A DNA stretch of 37,565 bases. Source: an uncultured Verrucomicrobiota bacterium. Lineage in GTDB: Bacteria > Verrucomicrobiota > Verrucomicrobiia > Opitutales > Opitutaceae. Below are positions 3,014 through 20,617 of this stretch, piece by piece (positions within the stretch are counted from its first letter, which is position 1; the number at the start of each line of letters is the position of its first letter). Position numbers and translations under genes: made by a program. Below the pieces are notes generated by a model. It ran no database searches, had not been told where the DNA came from, and saw nothing but the letters and a program-made list of their open reading frames with translations. Where the stretch lies: NCBI GenBank assembly GCA_903960515.1, contig CAJCBL010000207.1, forward strand, positions 1 to 37,565. Reading direction: 5' to 3'.

Positions 3014-4033
3014 TCACCTACCCCGGGGATGGTAGCGAGAATGCAGGTCGGTGAGCCGCGTTGTCTCAACTGCGGTGTAGATTTGCGTGGTGCCAATATC
3101 GGCATGTCCCAGCATTTCTTGAATCGCTCGCAAATCCGCCCCACCGGCCAACAAGTGGGTGGCGAAAGAATGCCTAAGTAGATGGGGTTTAACACACTTC
3201 GGCAATCCCGCCTTGCGGGCATAGCCCTTGATCAAGGCCCAGATCGTCTTACGCGAAATCGCTTTCCCTCGCTCCGACAGGAAAAGAGCACTCCCAGTGC
3301 GCGGTTTGACCAGCCCCGGACGCCCCGCCGCCAAGTAGTCGGCCACCGCCAGAGCCGCGCTCCCGCCCACAGGCACCACGCGTTCCTTTGCCCCTTTTCC
3401 AAATACCCGCACAAACCCTTGCTGGAGGTCGATTTGTTGCAGGGCCAACCCGGCCAATTCGGAGACCCGCAGCCCGCTTGAGTAGAACAGCTCCAGCATC
3501 GCCCTGTCGCGCAGTCCGTGAGCAGTCCCGGAGACCGGTGCGGCGAGGAGGGTTTCCATGTCGGTTTCGCTCAGGGTCGCAGGCAGCCTCCGGCTGGTTT
3601 TCGGCCCCTGAACGAGCTCGGTAAAGTCCTGCTTGCAAACCGCTTCCTTCACTAGGTAGCGGGCCAGCATCCGCACGGCCGAGAGCTTCCGCCCCATGCT
3701 CGAGGTCGCCATTCCCTGCCGCGAGAGGCCATAGAGCCAGTCCGACACATGCGCGCCCACCACATCCGCCCAGTTTGTAATCTTCAGGGAAACCAGTACG
3801 TCGGCGAACTGCAACAGGTCGACCTGGTAGGCCGCAGTGGTGTTGCGAGACAGGCCGCGTTCCAACTGCAAATAGGCCAGAAAACCGTCCACAGGCTCGC
3901 GCAGACTCTCGGGCAAAGGCGGCTTCGGCGCGGGTTGGGAGCGCTTCGCCTCGCCGGTCTTGGCTACACGGTCCGGTCCTTGCCCCCGCGCGGGCGAGGC
4001 GGGCGGCGCAGGGTTCTTCTCTTCTCCGGGCAT
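3014..4033 (-). CDS. xerD: Tyrosine recombinase, XerC/XerD type
   Basis: This 339-residue protein has the full tyrosine-recombinase catalytic set: Arg189 in GLRVSEL, Lys213 in FGKGAKER, His284 and Arg287 in KPHLLRHSFATHLL, His310 in MLGHADIGTTQIY, and nucleophile Tyr319. Residues about 45-130 form the N-terminal SAM-like core-binding domain (FLAYLQLERGLSRNT). Xer proteins resolve chromosome dimers at dif sites near the septum. The length is about 40 residues over the usual 300 because of a Pro/Lys/Arg-rich N-terminal extension, which may be real or reflect a start further inside. The gene begins 23 bases after the infA stop, so the two are likely co-transcribed. XerD fits better than XerC by general resemblance (QEMLGHADIGTTQIYTAV), but the two cannot be separated firmly here. 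No integrated element is visible nearby, so this is more likely the housekeeping enzyme than a phage integrase. Confidence 0.88.
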   Translation of the reverse strand: MPGEEKNPAPPASPARGQGPDRVAKTGEAKRSQPAPKPPLPESLREPVDGFLAYLQLERGLSRNTTAAYQVDLLQFADVLVSLKITNWADVVGAHVSDWLYGLSRQGMATSSMGRKLSAVRMLARYLVKEAVCKQDFTELVQGPKTSRRLPATLSETDMETLLAAPVSGTAHGLRDRAMLELFYSSGLRVSELAGLALQQIDLQQGFVRVFGKGAKERVVPVGGSAALAVADYLAAGRPGLVKPRTGSALFLSERGKAISRKTIWALIKGYARKAGLPKCVKPHLLRHSFATHLLAGGADLRAIQEMLGHADIGTTQIYTAVETTRLTDLHSRYHPRGR

Positions 4034-13562: not shown

Positions 13563-14930
13563 CTAACCGTCGCGAGGCCCCACCTTGCGCTCGATCAAGG
13601 GCAGCATCACCCCCCGGCGGAACAGCGTCACCTGCCCCGTGCTGGAGGAAACCACGATCGACACGCAGTCGGTTGCCACCGACATCGCCGCACCCGCAGC
13701 GTGCCGGGAGCCCAACCCACCGGGCAGCGGATGCTCCACGTCGGCGGCCTGCAGCAGGCTGCCGGCCGAGCGCACCACTCCGTCGCCCCGGATGATGAAG
13801 GCCCCGTCGATCGACGAGAACTCCTTGATGGTCTCGTCCATGAACGGATTGAGGATGTTCTTGTCCTCATCCTTGTAACCGTAAAACGGGTTCATCACGA
13901 GCGGCTTGCTCATGCGCTCCACCTTGGCGGTGTCGCCCACCACGAAGAGGCAGCCCACCGGCCGGCCCTCGCGCCCCTCGGCCGAGAGCTCCGTGGCCAC
14001 CGCCAGCACCCGCTCCAACACCTCGGGCTTCACGTCCGGGGGCAGCAGGTCGGAGCGCCCGGAGAGCAGCGTCTGGAACTCCCGCTCCACGTCGACCACC
14101 ACGATGGTGTCAAACTGGTTACTGTCGGCGATACCGCCCACGCAACACAGGCGATCATTGAATTGGAACCACCCGCGAGAGAGCCCCACCAGCATCGCGC
14201 TGCGCAACTGGGCGAAGCGGCCGCTGGAGTAGGCCTTCACCTGGATGATCCTGGTGAACTTCTCCTGCAGCAGGTTGGCCTCGACGGCATCGCTGGTCAC
14301 CAGAGTGGTCGGTATGGCCGGGAACGGCTTCGAGAGGGCTGCGGTGCTGGTGCAGGTATCGCCGAATACGATCACTCCCTGGCAATCCGCCCCGCGGGCG
14401 ATGCGCTCGGCATGGCGCAGGATGGTGCGGTTCACGCGTCCTTGTTGCACCGGCACGGGTCGCTCGGCGATGCCGCCAAACCCGGAGCTGAGCAACTGGA
14501 ACGCCCCCTCGGCGGAGGGCGCAAAGACCAGTTTCTCGACAAACTCCCGGTCCTTGAGCAACCGGGCCACGGAGGCGAGCACCTTGAGGTAGTCGCGGGC
14601 TCGCTCGTCGGCGAGCAGCAGGATGATGAGCTGGATGTTCTCGTTTTCCTTTAGCCCATCATAACCGATACCGGCCTGGCTGCGCCCGACCGCCAGCAGG
14701 TAGCGGCGCTTCATCTTGGTGCGCACATGCGGCAGGGCAACGCCGTCGCCAAGGTAGGTGGTCATCGTGCTCTCCCGCTCCAGCAGGCTTTTGAGCAGGG
14801 TGTCGCGATTGAGCTCGCGGAACGGCTTGGCGGTGGCCTCCAGCAGTTCGCGCAGCGCCCCGGTGAGGTCGGTGCTCTGGAGGTCGATCACTCGCTTGCG
14901 GGTGAGGAACCTGTCGAGGCGCATGGTCAT
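13563..14930 (-). CDS. PTS EIIA / pyruvate-kinase-C-like / diadenylate cyclase fusion
   Basis: The 455-residue protein has three parts. Residues about 8-145 resemble a fructose/nitrogen-type PTS EIIA domain, with the phosphorylatable His68 kept in [11 protein letters not shown]. Residues about 165-265 resemble the C-terminal domain of pyruvate kinase ([46 protein letters not shown]). Residues about 300-450 form a DisA_N/DAC domain: DGA at 375-377, GLGSRH at 405-410, and [22 protein letters not shown] domains make cyclic di-AMP from two ATP. The usual RHR motif reads RHA here, as I recall for archaeal DacZ-type enzymes, which also carry a pyruvate-kinase-like domain. The EIIA part suggests control by phosphotransfer. 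It lies between nuoA (27 bases) and rpmG. Domain assignments rest on motif reading. Confidence 0.75.
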
Positions 14931-14957: not shown

Positions 14958-15335
14958 TTACCGCTCCCAGTCCAGCGCACCCTTTTTCACCTCGTAGAGG
15001 AGCCCGAGGACGAGCAGTCCCATGAAGCACAACGCCGGCAGCAGCACCGGCACGCCCCAGGCGAGAAACTCCCGGTAGATGAACGTCCAGGGCAGGAGGA
15101 ACACCACCTCGATGTCGAAGAGGATGAAAAGCAGCGCGGTGACAAAAAACTTCACCGAGAAACGGGGATGCACCTTGCCGGATACGGGCACGCCGCACTC
15201 GTAGGCGCTGTCCTTGATCGCGTTGTGGCGTCCGCGTTGTCCGAATATGTGGCTGGCGACAATGATCCCCACGCCCATGGCGGCGGCGAGGACGATTTGC
15301 ACAAGCACCGGCAGGTAGTCGGGGAGCGCGGACAT
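14958..15335 (-). CDS. nuoA: NADH-quinone oxidoreductase subunit A
   Basis: The 125-residue protein matches NuoA: a first membrane helix (VLVQIVLAAAMGVGIIVASHIFG), the conserved loop KDSAYECGVPVSGKVHPRFSVKFFVTALLFILFDIEVVFLLPW with its Cys and acidic residues, and a third helix ending in YEVKKGALDWER. NuoA is part of the membrane arm of complex I near the quinone site. In most genomes it is followed by nuoB; here the next gene is the EIIA-cyclase fusion, so nuoA is separated from other nuo genes within this window. Confidence 0.93.
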   Translation of the reverse strand: MSALPDYLPVLVQIVLAAAMGVGIIVASHIFGQRGRHNAIKDSAYECGVPVSGKVHPRFSVKFFVTALLFILFDIEVVFLLPWTFIYREFLAWGVPVLLPALCFMGLLVLGLLYEVKKGALDWER

Positions 15336-16350: not shown

Positions 16351-16586
16351 TTGCGTCCAAAACCTTTCATGTGGTCAGGATTGTGGCCTCGGTCAGCCAG
16401 CTTGCCGTCCACCGCACCAATAGCGCTGCCCATCAGCTCGAACAGCGAAGGAGCGTCGAGAGTCTCCCGCAATTTCTCGTCCAAGGCTTCTCGCACTACA
16501 ACAGACTTCGCCACGCGGCGACGGGAGGCCATCCGTGCCAAACGGGCGGCGGTTTCGGGCGGCACCTTCAGAGAGATCGTCGGCAT
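16347..16586 (-). CDS. vapB: Ribbon-helix-helix antitoxin, VapB-like
   Basis: The 79-residue protein starts with a beta strand and two helices typical of ribbon-helix-helix (CopG/Arc-like) repressors: MPTISLKVPPETAARLARMA, then SRRRVAKSVVVREALDEKL. The C-terminal half should wrap the toxin (SLFELMGSAIGAVDGKLADRGHNPDHMKGFG). Such antitoxins repress their own promoter with the toxin as co-repressor. It overlaps vapC by 4 bases. Confidence 0.83.
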   Translation of the reverse strand: MPTISLKVPPETAARLARMASRRRVAKSVVVREALDEKLRETLDAPSLFELMGSAIGAVDGKLADRGHNPDHMKGFGRK

Positions 16587-16593
16587 GGCCGCG

Positions 16594-16604
16594 AGGTAAT
16601 ACCT
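16594..16604. promoter_or_regulatory. Candidate VapB operator
   Basis: An 11-base inverted repeat AGGTA-A-TACCT lies 8 bases upstream of the antitoxin ATG. A TTGACA on the minus strand (16616-16621) lies just behind it and could be the -35. Position and symmetry fit autoregulation by a ribbon-helix-helix dimer. Confidence 0.35.
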
Positions 16605-16705
16605 ACGGCGACACCTGTCAATACCCCCGGCTGTCCGGCTCGATGGTCCAGCGCGCTTGCCCCTGGTCGGGCGCCCGTCTTGAGTGGACTCTCGCTCCGG
16701 CCGGC

Positions 16706-19700
16706 ATGAACGAAAACCACGCCTACATCTTCGACGTCGAACAGCCCACCCAGTGGGTCTTCGACGGCAAACCCACCTGGATAGCAGGATGGTTCCTCTC
16801 CAAAACCGAAGCGGTGTTCTCGGACATCCGCGCAGTGATCGGCGGCCGCGCGTACCTTGGGGTATTCGGACTGCCGCACGAGCACATGGAAAAATGCCAC
16901 CGGGGGCGCTGCGGCCTGCCGCACGCCGGCTTCATCCTCCAGGTGTGCCCACCTCTTGGATCCACCGAGCTCCGGCTGGAGCTGCTCGATGCCGGCCGCA
17001 ACTGGGTGGAGATCTGGCGCACGCCCATCGAGGTGCGCCAGGGGCCCGCCACCCCGCCCCCCCTCGATGTCGAGTGCCTGCCGGCCATCTGGCGCGAACT
17101 CCTCCAGGCCCGTCGCGCCGATCCCACCACAGACCTCGCCCCCGCAGCCGACCGCCTCATCGAGGCGGCCGCGGCCGTCCCGCTCGACACTCTGCCCAAC
17201 CCGCCCTTCTTCGGCGCGCTGGAAAACCCGCTGCGCGTGGCCGGCACCCAGTTCGGCAAGATCCGCATCGAGGGGTGGTTGATCCACAAGGACCAGCGCA
17301 TCGTGCGCCTGCTCGGCAGCACCCATCCCAACGTGGAGAACACGATCCAGCACGAATTCCGTGAGCGTCCCGAGGCCGGCGAACTGTTTCCGGATCATCC
17401 CTACGCTCGCAAGTCGCAGTTCTTCGGCATGCTCGACCTTGAGGAGGGCGCGCCGAACCCGGTCTGCGTAAAAATCTTCGCCGAACTCGCCGACGGCTCC
17501 CGCCACCTCGTATGGGTGCGCCGGGTGTACCAGAAAACCTGCGCCCAGCAGGAGCGCCCGTTGCCCGAGTTCTCCGAGCGCCTGCTGCTGGATACCGGCC
17601 GAGCACTACTGGCCGCCGCCCGCCGCCGCGGAGTCCCCCTGGGGCCGCTCAAGCCGCTGTGGGCAGCCGCCAAGATCACCCGCGAAACCTTCCGGCGCGA
17701 CGCCCCCCTGGCCCTCGCCGCCCGCGCCCTCCCGTCGGGCGATCCCTACACCGCCTGGCAGCAGGCCAACCGCCTCGCCCCACGCCTGCTGGCAAAGATG
17801 CGCGAATCCGCGGCCGCGCTACAGGCCACCGGCCCGCGTTTCCTCCTTCTTATCGACGCCGCGGGCTGTCGCGGCGAGGAGCTCCAGCAGCTTGTCGCCT
17901 CGCTCTCCGCACAGCTCTACCCGCACTGGGAGGCCCGGCTGGTCATCTCCGCCGCTCCCCAGCCCGAGCTCGCCAACGCCCTGCGGGCCGAGCCGCGCTG
18001 CACCAGCGTCGTCCATGCCGGCGGCGCCGATTGCCTGCGCGCGCTCAACGCCGCCGCCCACGCCTCCACCGCCTCCTACCTCTCCCTGCTGCCCGGGCAC
18101 TCCCGCCTCTCGCCCGATGCCCTCCTGCACGCCGCCGAGGCCATCGCCCGCCGGCCCGACCTTGAGCTGGTCTACACCGACGAGGACCGGATGGATACCG
18201 CCGGGCGCCGTACCGCCCCCGCCTTCAAGCCCGACTGGAGCCCGGCCCTCGCCCTCTCCGGCCTCTTCCCCGGCCAGCTCAGCCTGGTGCGCCGCGAGCG
18301 CTTCGTAGCCCTCGGCTCCTTCCGTGTCGAGTATCCGGACATCCCCTGGTTCGACCTGCTGCTGCGCCTCGGCGACCGGCTCCCGGCCGGGAGCGTCGCC
18401 CACCTGCCCTTTGTTTGCCACCACAGCCGAGCCAACCGGCCGGATACCACCGATCTAGCCGCGCCCGCCGTAGAGCAGGCGCGCCAGGCGCTGGCCGAGG
18501 CGATGCAGCGCCGCCAGCTCGCCGCCTCGCCCTTCCTGCCCGAGGCCGCACACCAGCGCCGGCTCAATTTCCACCAGTTGCGCTGGGACCCTCTGCTGCT
18601 CGCGGCCAGCCCGGTCACCATCGTCATCCCCACCCGCGACAAGCTCCATCTTCTGCAAGAGTGCATCGAGCTTCTGGAGGAGACGGTGGACTGGCGCCAC
18701 GTGAAGCTGGTCATCGTGGACGACCACTCGCGCGACGCCGACGCCACCCGCTACCTCGCCCAAATCGTCCAGCGCACCGACCTACGCTGCACCGTCGTGC
18801 GCCCGGCCGACCCGCACGCACCGTTCAACTACTCGCATCTGGTCAACCTCGCCCTGCCCCACATCGACACGCCGCTGGTCCTGCACCTCAACAACGACGT
18901 CAACGCCCTGGAACGCGGCTGGCTGGAGGAGATGGTGGGCTGGTTCACTCAACCCGACGTGGGCGTGGTGGGCGCCAAGTTGCTCTACCCGGAGAAAACG
19001 CTCAACCACACCGGCATCGTCATCGGCCCGCACGAGGGTCTCGCGGATACCCCGCTGGTGAAGGCCGTCGAGCGCGAGGCACCGGTGATCTGGCACGCTG
19101 CCGCCCGCGAGGTCTCCGCGGTAACCGGAGCGTGCCTGATGACTCGCACCGAGCTGTACCGGCAACTCGGAGGCTTCGACGAGCGCGACTTCAGCGTTTC
19201 CTACAACGACGTAGACTACTGCCTGCGCGCCGTGGCCGCGGGCTGGCGGGTGGTCTACACCCCGCAGGCCAAGCTCATGCACTGGGGCAGCGCCACGCGC
19301 GGGGTCACCTTCGACGAGGCCGAGCACATCGCCTTCGTGCGCCGCCACCGGCAGGAGCGCGACCCGTACTTCAGCCGCCACCTGATGCTGGATGCACAGT
19401 TGCGCCCGCGCTGCCGCGGCGCCGCCAGTGCCCACACCGGCCGCGCCGGCCGGCTGCATGTGCTGCTGATCACGCACAACCTCAACCTCGAGGGCGCGCC
19501 GCTCTTCCTGCTCGAATACGCCACGCACCTGGTGCGCTCGGCCGGCTTCGAGATCACCGTGGTCTCCAACGAGGAGGGCCCCCTGCGCACGCGCTACGAG
19601 GAGCTCGGCGCGAAGATCATCCTGGTGGACCGCCACCCCATCTACTCGGCGCAGAACGAGGCCCAGTTCCACGAGCGTATCGCCGCGGTGCGCGCCACGT

Positions 19701-20617
19701 TGCCCTTCGACCGGATCGACCTCGTGGTGTGCAACACCCTCGTGGGTTTCTGGGGCGTGCACCTCGCCAAACAGGCGGGAAAGCCCTCGCTGTTCTATAT
19801 CCACGAGAGCACTTCCGTGTACCGGTTCTATGAGCGCATGCTCCTGCGCCCCATGCACCGAGTGGCCGAGCAGGCGCTGGCCCAGGCCGACCGCACGCTC
19901 TTCCTGTGCGAGGCCACGCGCGCCTACTACGAGGACTGCAACCGCCACGGCAACTTCCGCATCGTGCGCAGCTGGATCGACCTCGAGGGCATCGAGCGCT
20001 TCAAGGCCGCCCACACCCGTGCAGATCTGCGCCGCAAATACGGGTTCCGCGACGACGAGACCATCATCGCCAACATCGGCACCGTGTGCGAGCGCAAGGG
20101 CCAGCACATCTTCATCCGCGCCATCGAGCACTTCAACCGCCACCACCGCGACGACGCCCGCCCGGTGCGCTTTGTCATGGTCGGGGCCCGCGCCGGCATC
20201 TACCTCGACTGGCTCACCGCCGACATCGAGCGGCTCGGGCTGACTAATCTCACCCTCATTCCCGAGACGCGCGAGGCCTACGACTTCTTCCTGCTGGCCG
20301 ACCTCTTCGTGTGTACCAGCTACGAGGAGTCGTTTCCCCGGGTGGTGATGGAGGCGATGGCCTTCCGTACCCCGATAGTGACGACCGACGTCCACGGTAT
20401 CCCGGAAATGGTGCGCCAGCGGGCCGAGGCCTATCTGGTGAAACCCGGCGAGGTCGAGGGGCTCTCGCGCATGATGCGCACCTGCCTGGCCAAGGAGCGC
20501 AGCGGCAAGTCGCTCACCCCCACGGCCTACTCGAAGGTGTTGCGCGCCTACGACCACCGCGAGGTACTGCCGCAGCACGTGGCCCTCGCCCGCGAGGTGG
20601 TGCTGGGCCACGAGTAA
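16706..20617 (+). CDS. Three-module glycosyltransferase (GT2-like, GT2, GT4)
   Basis: From the ATG at 16706 the protein has 1303 residues. Residues 1 to about 310 hold two similar beta-rich units (MNENHAYIFDVEQPTQWVFD and TQFGKIRIEGWLIHKDQ). From about 375 to 590 is a GT2-like module with YTDEDRMD and FKPDWSP, but the metal-binding DXD position reads LLPGHSRLSPDAL, so it is probably inactive. From about 635 to 880 is an apparently intact GT2 module: PVTIVIPTRD, LNNDV near 727-730, TGACLM, YNDVDYCLR and HWGSATRG. From about 915 on is a GT4 module with GTVCERKGQ, a TSYEESFPRVVMEAMAF nucleotide-binding motif and VTTDVHGIPEMV. It has no membrane segment. Such proteins build lipopolysaccharide or capsule chains at the cytoplasmic face. 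The GT39-like gene follows by 20 bases. Confidence 0.87.
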   Translation: MNENHAYIFDVEQPTQWVFDGKPTWIAGWFLSKTEAVFSDIRAVIGGRAYLGVFGLPHEHMEKCHRGRCGLPHAGFILQVCPPLGSTELRLELLDAGRNWVEIWRTPIEVRQGPATPPPLDVECLPAIWRELLQARRADPTTDLAPAADRLIEAAAAVPLDTLPNPPFFGALENPLRVAGTQFGKIRIEGWLIHKDQRIVRLLGSTHPNVENTIQHEFRERPEAGELFPDHPYARKSQFFGMLDLEEGAPNPVCVKIFAELADGSRHLVWVRRVYQKTCAQQERPLPEFSERLLLDTGRALLAAARRRGVPLGPLKPLWAAAKITRETFRRDAPLALAARALPSGDPYTAWQQANRLAPRLLAKMRESAAALQATGPRFLLLIDAAGCRGEELQQLVASLSAQLYPHWEARLVISAAPQPELANALRAEPRCTSVVHAGGADCLRALNAAAHASTASYLSLLPGHSRLSPDALLHAAEAIARRPDLELVYTDEDRMDTAGRRTAPAFKPDWSPALALSGLFPGQLSLVRRERFVALGSFRVEYPDIPWFDLLLRLGDRLPAGSVAHLPFVCHHSRANRPDTTDLAAPAVEQARQALAEAMQRRQLAASPFLPEAAHQRRLNFHQLRWDPLLLAASPVTIVIPTRDKLHLLQECIELLEETVDWRHVKLVIVDDHSRDADATRYLAQIVQRTDLRCTVVRPADPHAPFNYSHLVNLALPHIDTPLVLHLNNDVNALERGWLEEMVGWFTQPDVGVVGAKLLYPEKTLNHTGIVIGPHEGLADTPLVKAVEREAPVIWHAAAREVSAVTGACLMTRTELYRQLGGFDERDFSVSYNDVDYCLRAVAAGWRVVYTPQAKLMHWGSATRGVTFDEAEHIAFVRRHRQERDPYFSRHLMLDAQLRPRCRGAASAHTGRAGRLHVLLITHNLNLEGAPLFLLEYATHLVRSAGFEITVVSNEEGPLRTRYEELGAKIILVDRHPIYSAQNEAQFHERIAAVRATLPFDRIDLVVCNTLVGFWGVHLAKQAGKPSLFYIHESTSVYRFYERMLLRPMHRVAEQALAQADRTLFLCEATRAYYEDCNRHGNFRIVRSWIDLEGIERFKAAHTRADLRRKYGFRDDETIIANIGTVCERKGQHIFIRAIEHFNRHHRDDARPVRFVMVGARAGIYLDWLTADIERLGLTNLTLIPETREAYDFFLLADLFVCTSYEESFPRVVMEAMAFRTPIVTTDVHGIPEMVRQRAEAYLVKPGEVEGLSRMMRTCLAKERSGKSLTPTAYSKVLRAYDHREVLPQHVALAREVVLGHE

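What the first reader, a model, noticed from the sequence alone, without database searches (positions are those of the whole stretch)
13563..14930. EIIA phosphotransfer domain fused to a DacZ-like diadenylate cyclase
One protein joins a PTS EIIA domain with its His68 intact, a pyruvate-kinase-C-like domain, and a cyclic di-AMP cyclase domain with DGA and GSRH motifs. Cyclic di-AMP cyclases in most bacteria are CdaA or DisA. The pyruvate-kinase-like plus DAC pair recalls archaeal DacZ. The EIIA part would let sugar or nitrogen phosphotransfer state control the second messenger. The RHA variant in place of RHR is worth a biochemical look.
Basis: partly seen in the sequence, partly recalled or inferred. 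Interest (0 to 1): 0.7.

Follow-up and report, generated by a model that had tools for sequence, protein, structure and literature searches.

The report
PTS-linked cyclic di-AMP synthase
A bacterium's only detected enzyme for making the signal molecule cyclic di-AMP carries a built-in domain of the sugar/nitrogen phosphate relay, an arrangement shared by nearly all its examined relatives that would tie this signal to the cell's carbon and energy state, though no one has shown here that it does.

Summary
ORF 13563-14930 (-), 455 aa, is EIIA (PtsN-like) + DacZ_P (pyruvate-kinase-C-like) + DAC, by Pfam and by an AlphaFold model matched to solved structures. Of 57 genomes (this one and 56 relatives), 52 have a DAC over the cut-off, each with the EIIA part: 49 in one frame, 3 split by contig ends or frame. 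The nearest named record is Opitutaceae.

His68 is kept in 70 of 73 distinct fusion proteins. The genome also encodes EI, HPr, HprK, a PgpH-type domain and a c-di-AMP riboswitch. At 8 scanned riboswitches the next gene is an amino-acid-permease-family protein (4; one tested matches K+ importer KimA), Kup (1) or Band_7 (3, this genome's included). Best reading: a DacZ-type cyclase tuned through EIIA, acting on K+ homeostasis. Phospho-control is inferred; natural experiments are mixed. RHA is no oddity: haloarchaeal DacZ also lacks that Arg.

The class is probably known: an open paper lists Opitutae 'DacD' cyclases. Found here: sole-cyclase status, relay and riboswitch context, and a nuoA-cyclase gene pair in 47 of 52 genomes.

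The parts
13563..14930 (-). EIIA-DacZ_P-DAC fusion gene (probable DacD-class diadenylate cyclase), 455 aa
   Evidence: conserved across the order
14466..14924 (-). EIIA domain (residues about 3-155), IIANtr fold
   Evidence: Pfam 27-148; VIA-align Z 20.9 to IIANtr 1a6j, 147 aligned, 2.0 A
14727..14729 (-). His68 codon, predicted phosphoacceptor
   Evidence: alignment to PtsN chains; H in 70 of 73 distinct rows
14070..14429 (-). DacZ_P domain (residues 168-287), pyruvate-kinase-C-like fold
   Evidence: Pfam; Z 14.6 to pyruvate kinase 5wrp residues 345-472, 121 aligned, 2.9 A
13608..13985 (-). DAC catalytic domain (residues 316-441)
   Evidence: Pfam; Z 14 to 16 to CdaA and DisA
13800..13808 (-). 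DGA motif (D375-A377)
   Evidence: D and G in 73 of 73, A in 68 of 73; aligned with CdaA DGA
13698..13718 (-). GLGSRHA motif (G405-A411)
   Evidence: R409, H410 in 73 of 73; aligned with CdaA LGTRHR
14958..15335 (-). nuoA homolog (complex I chain 3), directly upstream, 27 nt gap; co-transcription inferred
   Evidence: Pfam PF00507 5.9e-29; linkage in 47 of 52 DAC-positive genomes

Best explanation
It is the only detected cyclic di-AMP synthase of this Opitutaceae-like bacterium: a DacZ-type cyclase (PK_C-like domain + DAC) with a PtsN-type EIIA domain at its N-terminus. Two DAC domains meet to join two ATP into c-di-AMP (inferred from fold and catalytic residues). PEP, EI and HPr phosphorylate His68 of EIIA (inferred from the conserved His and the encoded relay; that HprK could damp it through HPr Ser is recalled knowledge of other bacteria). 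The phosphorylation state, perhaps with a ligand of the PK_C-like domain, changes the cyclase's arrangement and rate (inferred). c-di-AMP then acts on a riboswitch, which in some relatives precedes K+ importer genes (riboswitch and gene order shown; regulation inferred), and a PgpH-type enzyme removes it (domain shown). Direction is a guess: since unphosphorylated PtsN turns on K+ uptake through KdpD (PMC9239096), and c-di-AMP shuts K+ import, I lean to phosphorylated EIIA raising c-di-AMP.
For: Three domains by sequence and fold. One DAC hit in this genome; of 57 genomes 52 have a DAC over the cut-off and all 52 show the EIIA part, 49 in one frame, G033 and G047 split over contigs, G032 over two frames. 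Catalytic D, G, R, H in 73 of 73, His68 in 70 of 73, Pro67 in 73 of 73. HPr hits in 55 of 57, EI 53 of 57, HprK 52 of 57, all three in G000; the G000 HPr has GIHARP and a Ser in GKSIMG. 7TM-HD (PgpH-type) domain in G000. c-di-AMP riboswitch in 10 of 57, G000 included; of the next ORFs at 8 of these 10, 4 are AA_permease_2, 1 is Kup, 3 are Band_7 (G000's among them); one permease was compared and matches KimA at 6e-61. Two other EIIA genes of G000 flank two CorA genes and a P-type cation ATPase.
Against: No experiment. His and relay do not track each other: G042 keeps His68 with no EI, HPr or HprK hit; G039, G194, G219 have EI but Y or S at 68. The residue opposite a His of E. coli IIANtr is Tyr114 in 70 of 73. 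Riboswitch in only 10 of 57 (strict filters), and in G000 it precedes Band_7, not a K+ importer. EIIA conservation (0.61 mean) is like DacZ_P (0.62) and below DAC (0.81). The second Glu of the SEE motif is Ser in 72 of 73. pTM 0.58: domain placement is not trustworthy. PtsN's inhibition of TrkA (recalled) would point to the opposite direction of control. G000 is 96.8% complete in 379 contigs, so a second cyclase could be missed.
Confidence: 0.6

Rival explanations
1. The EIIA domain is a docking or dimerisation module that works without phosphotransfer: it binds partners such as transporters or kinases and places the cyclase beside them.
For: G042 keeps the whole fusion without EI or HPr hits; three proteins lost the His but kept the domain. 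Tyr stands opposite a His of E. coli IIANtr in 70 of 73. Elsewhere in the phylum EIIA is fused to an amino acid permease and to Zn-ribbon proteins.
Against: His68 kept in 70 of 73 and Pro67 in 73 of 73, across proteins down to about 32% identity, which is hard to explain without phosphorylation.
Confidence: 0.22
2. The PK_C-like DacZ_P domain is the main sensor, through a small ligand, and EIIA is minor.
For: DacZ_P sits before DAC also in the EIIA-less proteins L018, L103, L108; the PK_C fold binds fructose-1,6-bisphosphate in pyruvate kinase (PMC6741144, passages).
Against: EIIA has stayed with the cyclase in all 52 DAC-positive genomes of 57. In G042 DacZ_P is not recognised by Pfam at E 0.01 while EIIA is. 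No ligand site was examined.
Confidence: 0.12
3. The DAC domain is inactive or makes another product.
For: The third Arg of RHR and the second Glu of the SEE motif are absent.
Against: The same Arg is absent from annotated haloarchaeal DacZ, a family whose H. volcanii member makes c-di-AMP in vitro (PMC6741144, abstract). D, G, R, H are invariant in 73 rows. A c-di-AMP riboswitch is in the same genome, which shows no other DAC hit.
Confidence: 0.06

Closest known systems
DacD class of diadenylate cyclases (named in the Fig. A1 legend of PMC6741144, which cites Corrigan and Gruendling 2013 for its classes)
   Same: Its five listed representatives are Lacunisphaera limnophila, a Puniceicoccaceae bacterium, Coraliomargarita sp., a Verrucomicrobia bacterium and an Opitutae bacterium; Lacunisphaera is in Opitutaceae and Coraliomargarita in Opitutia, as is the nearest named relative here.
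   Different: The domain definition of DacD was not seen: the 2013 review is not held. That DacD means EIIA-DAC is my inference from the member list.
DacZ / CdaZ (archaeal)
   Same: PK_C-like domain before DAC; 34% identity over 199 columns to an annotated Haladaptatus DacZ; RHx without the third Arg.
   Different: Extra N-terminal EIIA domain; bacterial; NCBIfam DacZ score 116.5 against a cut-off of 430.
PtsN / EIIA-Ntr
   Same: IIANtr fold, Z 20.9; His68 in place.
   Different: Not free-standing but fused to a cyclase; Tyr114 opposite a His of E. coli IIANtr.
CdaA and DisA
   Same: DAC fold, DGA and RH motifs.
   Different: Pfam shows EIIA and DacZ_P instead of their other parts; third Arg and second Glu differ.

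Membership tests
Diadenylate cyclase (DAC, PF02457) | DAC domain over the curated cut-off | tested here: met
   72 bits against 27
Diadenylate cyclase (DAC, PF02457) | Conserved DGA and RH residues | tested here: met
   D, G, R, H in 73 of 73 rows, window included
[quoted passage not shown]
   third Arg is A, SEE is SSS in the window; haloarchaeal DacZ departs at the same two places, so this does not exclude it from DAC
Diadenylate cyclase (DAC, PF02457) | Makes c-di-AMP from ATP | not testable with these tools
   needs an assay
DacZ | PK_C-like N-terminal domain before DAC | tested here: met
   DacZ_P over cut-off; fold Z 14.6 to a pyruvate kinase C-terminal domain
DacZ | NCBIfam equivalog cut-off for DacZ (NF041371) | tested here: not met
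   116.5 of 430 bits; so DacZ-like, not that equivalog
DacD class | Cyclase of Opitutae, as the listed representatives are | tested here: met
   nearest named relative is an Opitutaceae MAG, 87%; member list and taxonomy
DacD class | The class's own domain definition | not tested
   source review not held
PTS EIIA (PF00359) | Domain over cut-off with the phosphoacceptor His | tested here: met
   76.6 of 27 bits; His68 aligned
PTS EIIA (PF00359) | EI and HPr in the same genome | tested here: met
PTS EIIA (PF00359) | Is phosphorylated by HPr | not testable with these tools
   needs an assay

The most novel reading that the evidence does not exclude
In a whole bacterial order the PTS phosphorelay is the direct input to c-di-AMP: PEP/HPr phosphorylation of the fused EIIA sets the only cyclase, which sets K+ balance, and the cyclase is made from one transcript with the complex I subunit NuoA, so carbon/energy state, respiration and K+ are tied in one circuit.
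Probability: 0.35. Interest if true: 0.72.

Novelty: new member of a known kind. Interest (0 to 1): 0.48.

Why it matters
How diadenylate cyclases are controlled is, as far as I know, largely open (recalled, not searched). PtsN acts on K+ systems in proteobacteria (PMC9239096, passages) and c-di-AMP on K+ importers in others (PMC10284832, abstract start); here both kinds of domain sit in one polypeptide that is the only detected cyclase in nearly all genomes of the order examined. EI, HPr, PEP and one enzyme would be enough to test a direct PTS-to-c-di-AMP link in vitro.

Tried and rejected
RHA as an unusual catalytic variant: rejected.

A simple coupling of His68 to EI/HPr presence: looked at in the four informative genomes (G039, G042, G194, G219), not found. 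Covariation of His68 with Tyr114: not found.

L103's 840-aa frame looked like a new fusion; I judged its first 500 or so residues to be open upstream frame, and the rest is DacZ_P-DAC.

nuoA linkage as proof of function: weakened, because an mrp homolog also stays in the flank in 17 of 39 loci.

Anti-phage defence: no PADLOC hit at E 0.01.

Novelty: searches showed no paper that I recognised as an experimental study of an EIIA-cyclase fusion; some searches listed only 20 of 25, 20 of 37 and 20 of 22 papers, and I judged by title and abstract start. Three papers I asked for are not held; the library lacks most subscription papers.

Not done: dimer modelling, ligand search in DacZ_P, fold searches of single domains, nuoA paralog phylogeny.

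Full report
What is there. The ORF 13563-14930 (-) encodes 455 aa from an ATG. Pfam finds PTS_EIIA_2 (27-148), DacZ_P (168-287) and DAC (316-441), all over cut-off, with PK_C itself below cut-off. An AlphaFold model from 59 of the 73 distinct full-length fusion proteins (alignment A1) has mean pLDDT 85.6 and pTM 0.58, so single domains are usable and their arrangement is not. The domains match IIANtr (Z 20.9), DisA and CdaA (Z about 14 to 16) and the C-terminal domain of pyruvate kinase (Z 14.6).

How widespread. The nearest named record is an Opitutaceae MAG, 87% identical; its contig length (54,860) equals that of G002:C191, so it is probably the same contig. The 'relatives' searches cover 57 genomes, this one (G000) included. 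Of these, 52 have a DAC over the cut-off, and in each of the 52 the EIIA part is found: in 49 in one frame with the cyclase; in G033 and G047 the two parts lie on separate contigs, so the fusion is inferred; in G032 they lie in two overlapping frames. G000 has one DAC hit only; one genome, G024, shows a second, below the cut-off. In a phylum sample of 288 genomes (G000 included) DacZ_P is in 46: 25 of the same family, 16 others of the same order, 5 elsewhere; two order genomes (G054, G191) are listed without a hit, and 222 further no-match genomes are not listed. Of the 5 outside the order, three of one family span the EIIA part too (L102, L104, L105; Pfam checked on L105), one lacks it (L103), one is cut by the contig start (L106). 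G216 has a second, EIIA-less copy (L108). A tree of 40 DacZ_P-DAC rows (36 of the 73 fusion rows, three EIIA-less rows and L106) puts the fusions and L106 on one side of a branch with support 97/89; the program warned of long branches and the root is a midpoint, so a single fusion event is only likely.

Residues. The 73 distinct rows are those that span query residues 10 or less to 400 or more, the window included and its copy L001 dropped; EIIA-less or cut proteins (L018, L103, L106, L108, L116, L117/L069, L075) are not among them. H68 is in 70, D375, G376, R409 and H410 in 73, A377 in 68, A411 in 66. Two annotated haloarchaeal DacZ have GLGTRHH, so the missing third Arg is shared with DacZ. 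The second Glu of the (V/I)SEE motif of other DACs (motif from PMC7288161, passages) is Ser in 72 of 73 and Thr in one. Tyr114 stands opposite a His of E. coli IIANtr in 70 of 73; that this His is the second active-site His is recalled.

The circuit. G000 encodes stand-alone EI and HPr, a second EIIA-HPr-EI protein beside an EIIC-EIIB sugar transporter, and HprK. HPr has GIHARP and a Ser in GKSIMG (that these are the EI and HprK sites is recalled). Over the 57 genomes the tallies are HPr 55, EI 53, HprK 52. G000 has a PgpH-type 7TM-HD domain and one c-di-AMP riboswitch over its gathering score, ahead of a Band_7 protein. Riboswitches are in 10 of 57 genomes; I gave Pfam the following large ORF at 8 of the 10: 4 AA_permease_2, 1 Kup, 3 Band_7; at the other 2 (L151, L152) I saw no clear ORF. 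One of the four permeases was compared with solved structures and matched KimA, 6e-61. KimA is inactivated by c-di-AMP in B. subtilis (PMC10284832, abstract start in the listing). In G000 two other EIIA genes flank two CorA genes and a P-type cation ATPase.

Against. His68 and the relay do not rise and fall together: G042 has no EI, HPr or HprK hit and keeps His; G039, G194 and G219 have EI and lost His. Four genomes are few, and G042 is small (0.9 Mb, 93% complete). The riboswitch is missing from most of the 57, though the search used strict filters. The analogy for the direction of control is double-edged: unphosphorylated PtsN activates kdp through KdpD (PMC9239096, passages), while its recalled inhibition of TrkA points the other way.

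nuoA. A nuoA homolog ends 27 nt before the cyclase ATG. By the coordinates, compared by eye, it directly precedes the cyclase (or its EIIA piece) on the same strand, within about 250 nt of the matched stretches, in 37 of 37 family genomes and 10 of 15 other DAC-positive genomes; the five without are G038, G040, G042 (no nuoA hit), G039 and G049 (hit elsewhere, weak in G049); in G048 the adjacent hit is weak and partial. By phmmer, 27 of 39 flank loci show it (the 39 include EIIA-less and other-class loci). In G006, a one-contig genome, the only nuoA hit (3,669 kb) is 282 kb from the only nuoD hit (3,386 kb), so nuoA there lies with the cyclase and not with nuoD. G000 also has a second nuoA inside a nuo cluster. 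Whether this linkage is functional is open.

Known or new. PMC6741144 (abstract, section 16 and passages seen) places DacZ and DacY/CdaZ in one family with some bacterial members and lists a DacD class with five Opitutae or Verrucomicrobia representatives. The 2013 review of the classes is not held. I therefore file this as a member of a known kind. I recognised no experimental study in the listings.

Verdict. Real, conserved and well placed for a PTS-to-c-di-AMP link; control by phosphorylation is inference.

Noticed in passing
window 14958-15335 and relatives L082-L121: A nuoA homolog forms a tight pair with the cyclase gene in 47 of 52 DAC-positive genomes, 282 kb away from the only nuoD hit in G006.
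   Followed up: partly
L148 (G000:C272:14000-26000): Cluster of EIIA, P-type cation ATPase, CorA, CorA, EIIA: EIIA modules beside cation transporters.
   Followed up: partly
L104:8882-10717: Amino acid permease with a C-terminal EIIA domain, in the same neighbourhood as an EIIA-DacZ cyclase elsewhere in the phylum.
   Followed up: partly
L143:2191-4402: c-di-AMP riboswitch followed by a 644-aa Band_7/SPFH protein; same arrangement at L155 and L158. A Band_7 target for c-di-AMP would be unusual as far as I recall.
   Followed up: partly
L108:6738-7637: G216 carries a second, EIIA-less DacZ-type cyclase on a very long branch.
   Followed up: partly
window 16535-20617: 1360-aa frame with family 2 and group 1/family 4 glycosyltransferase domains in one protein.
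   Followed up: no
window 3014-4033: Phage integrase family recombinase.
   Followed up: no
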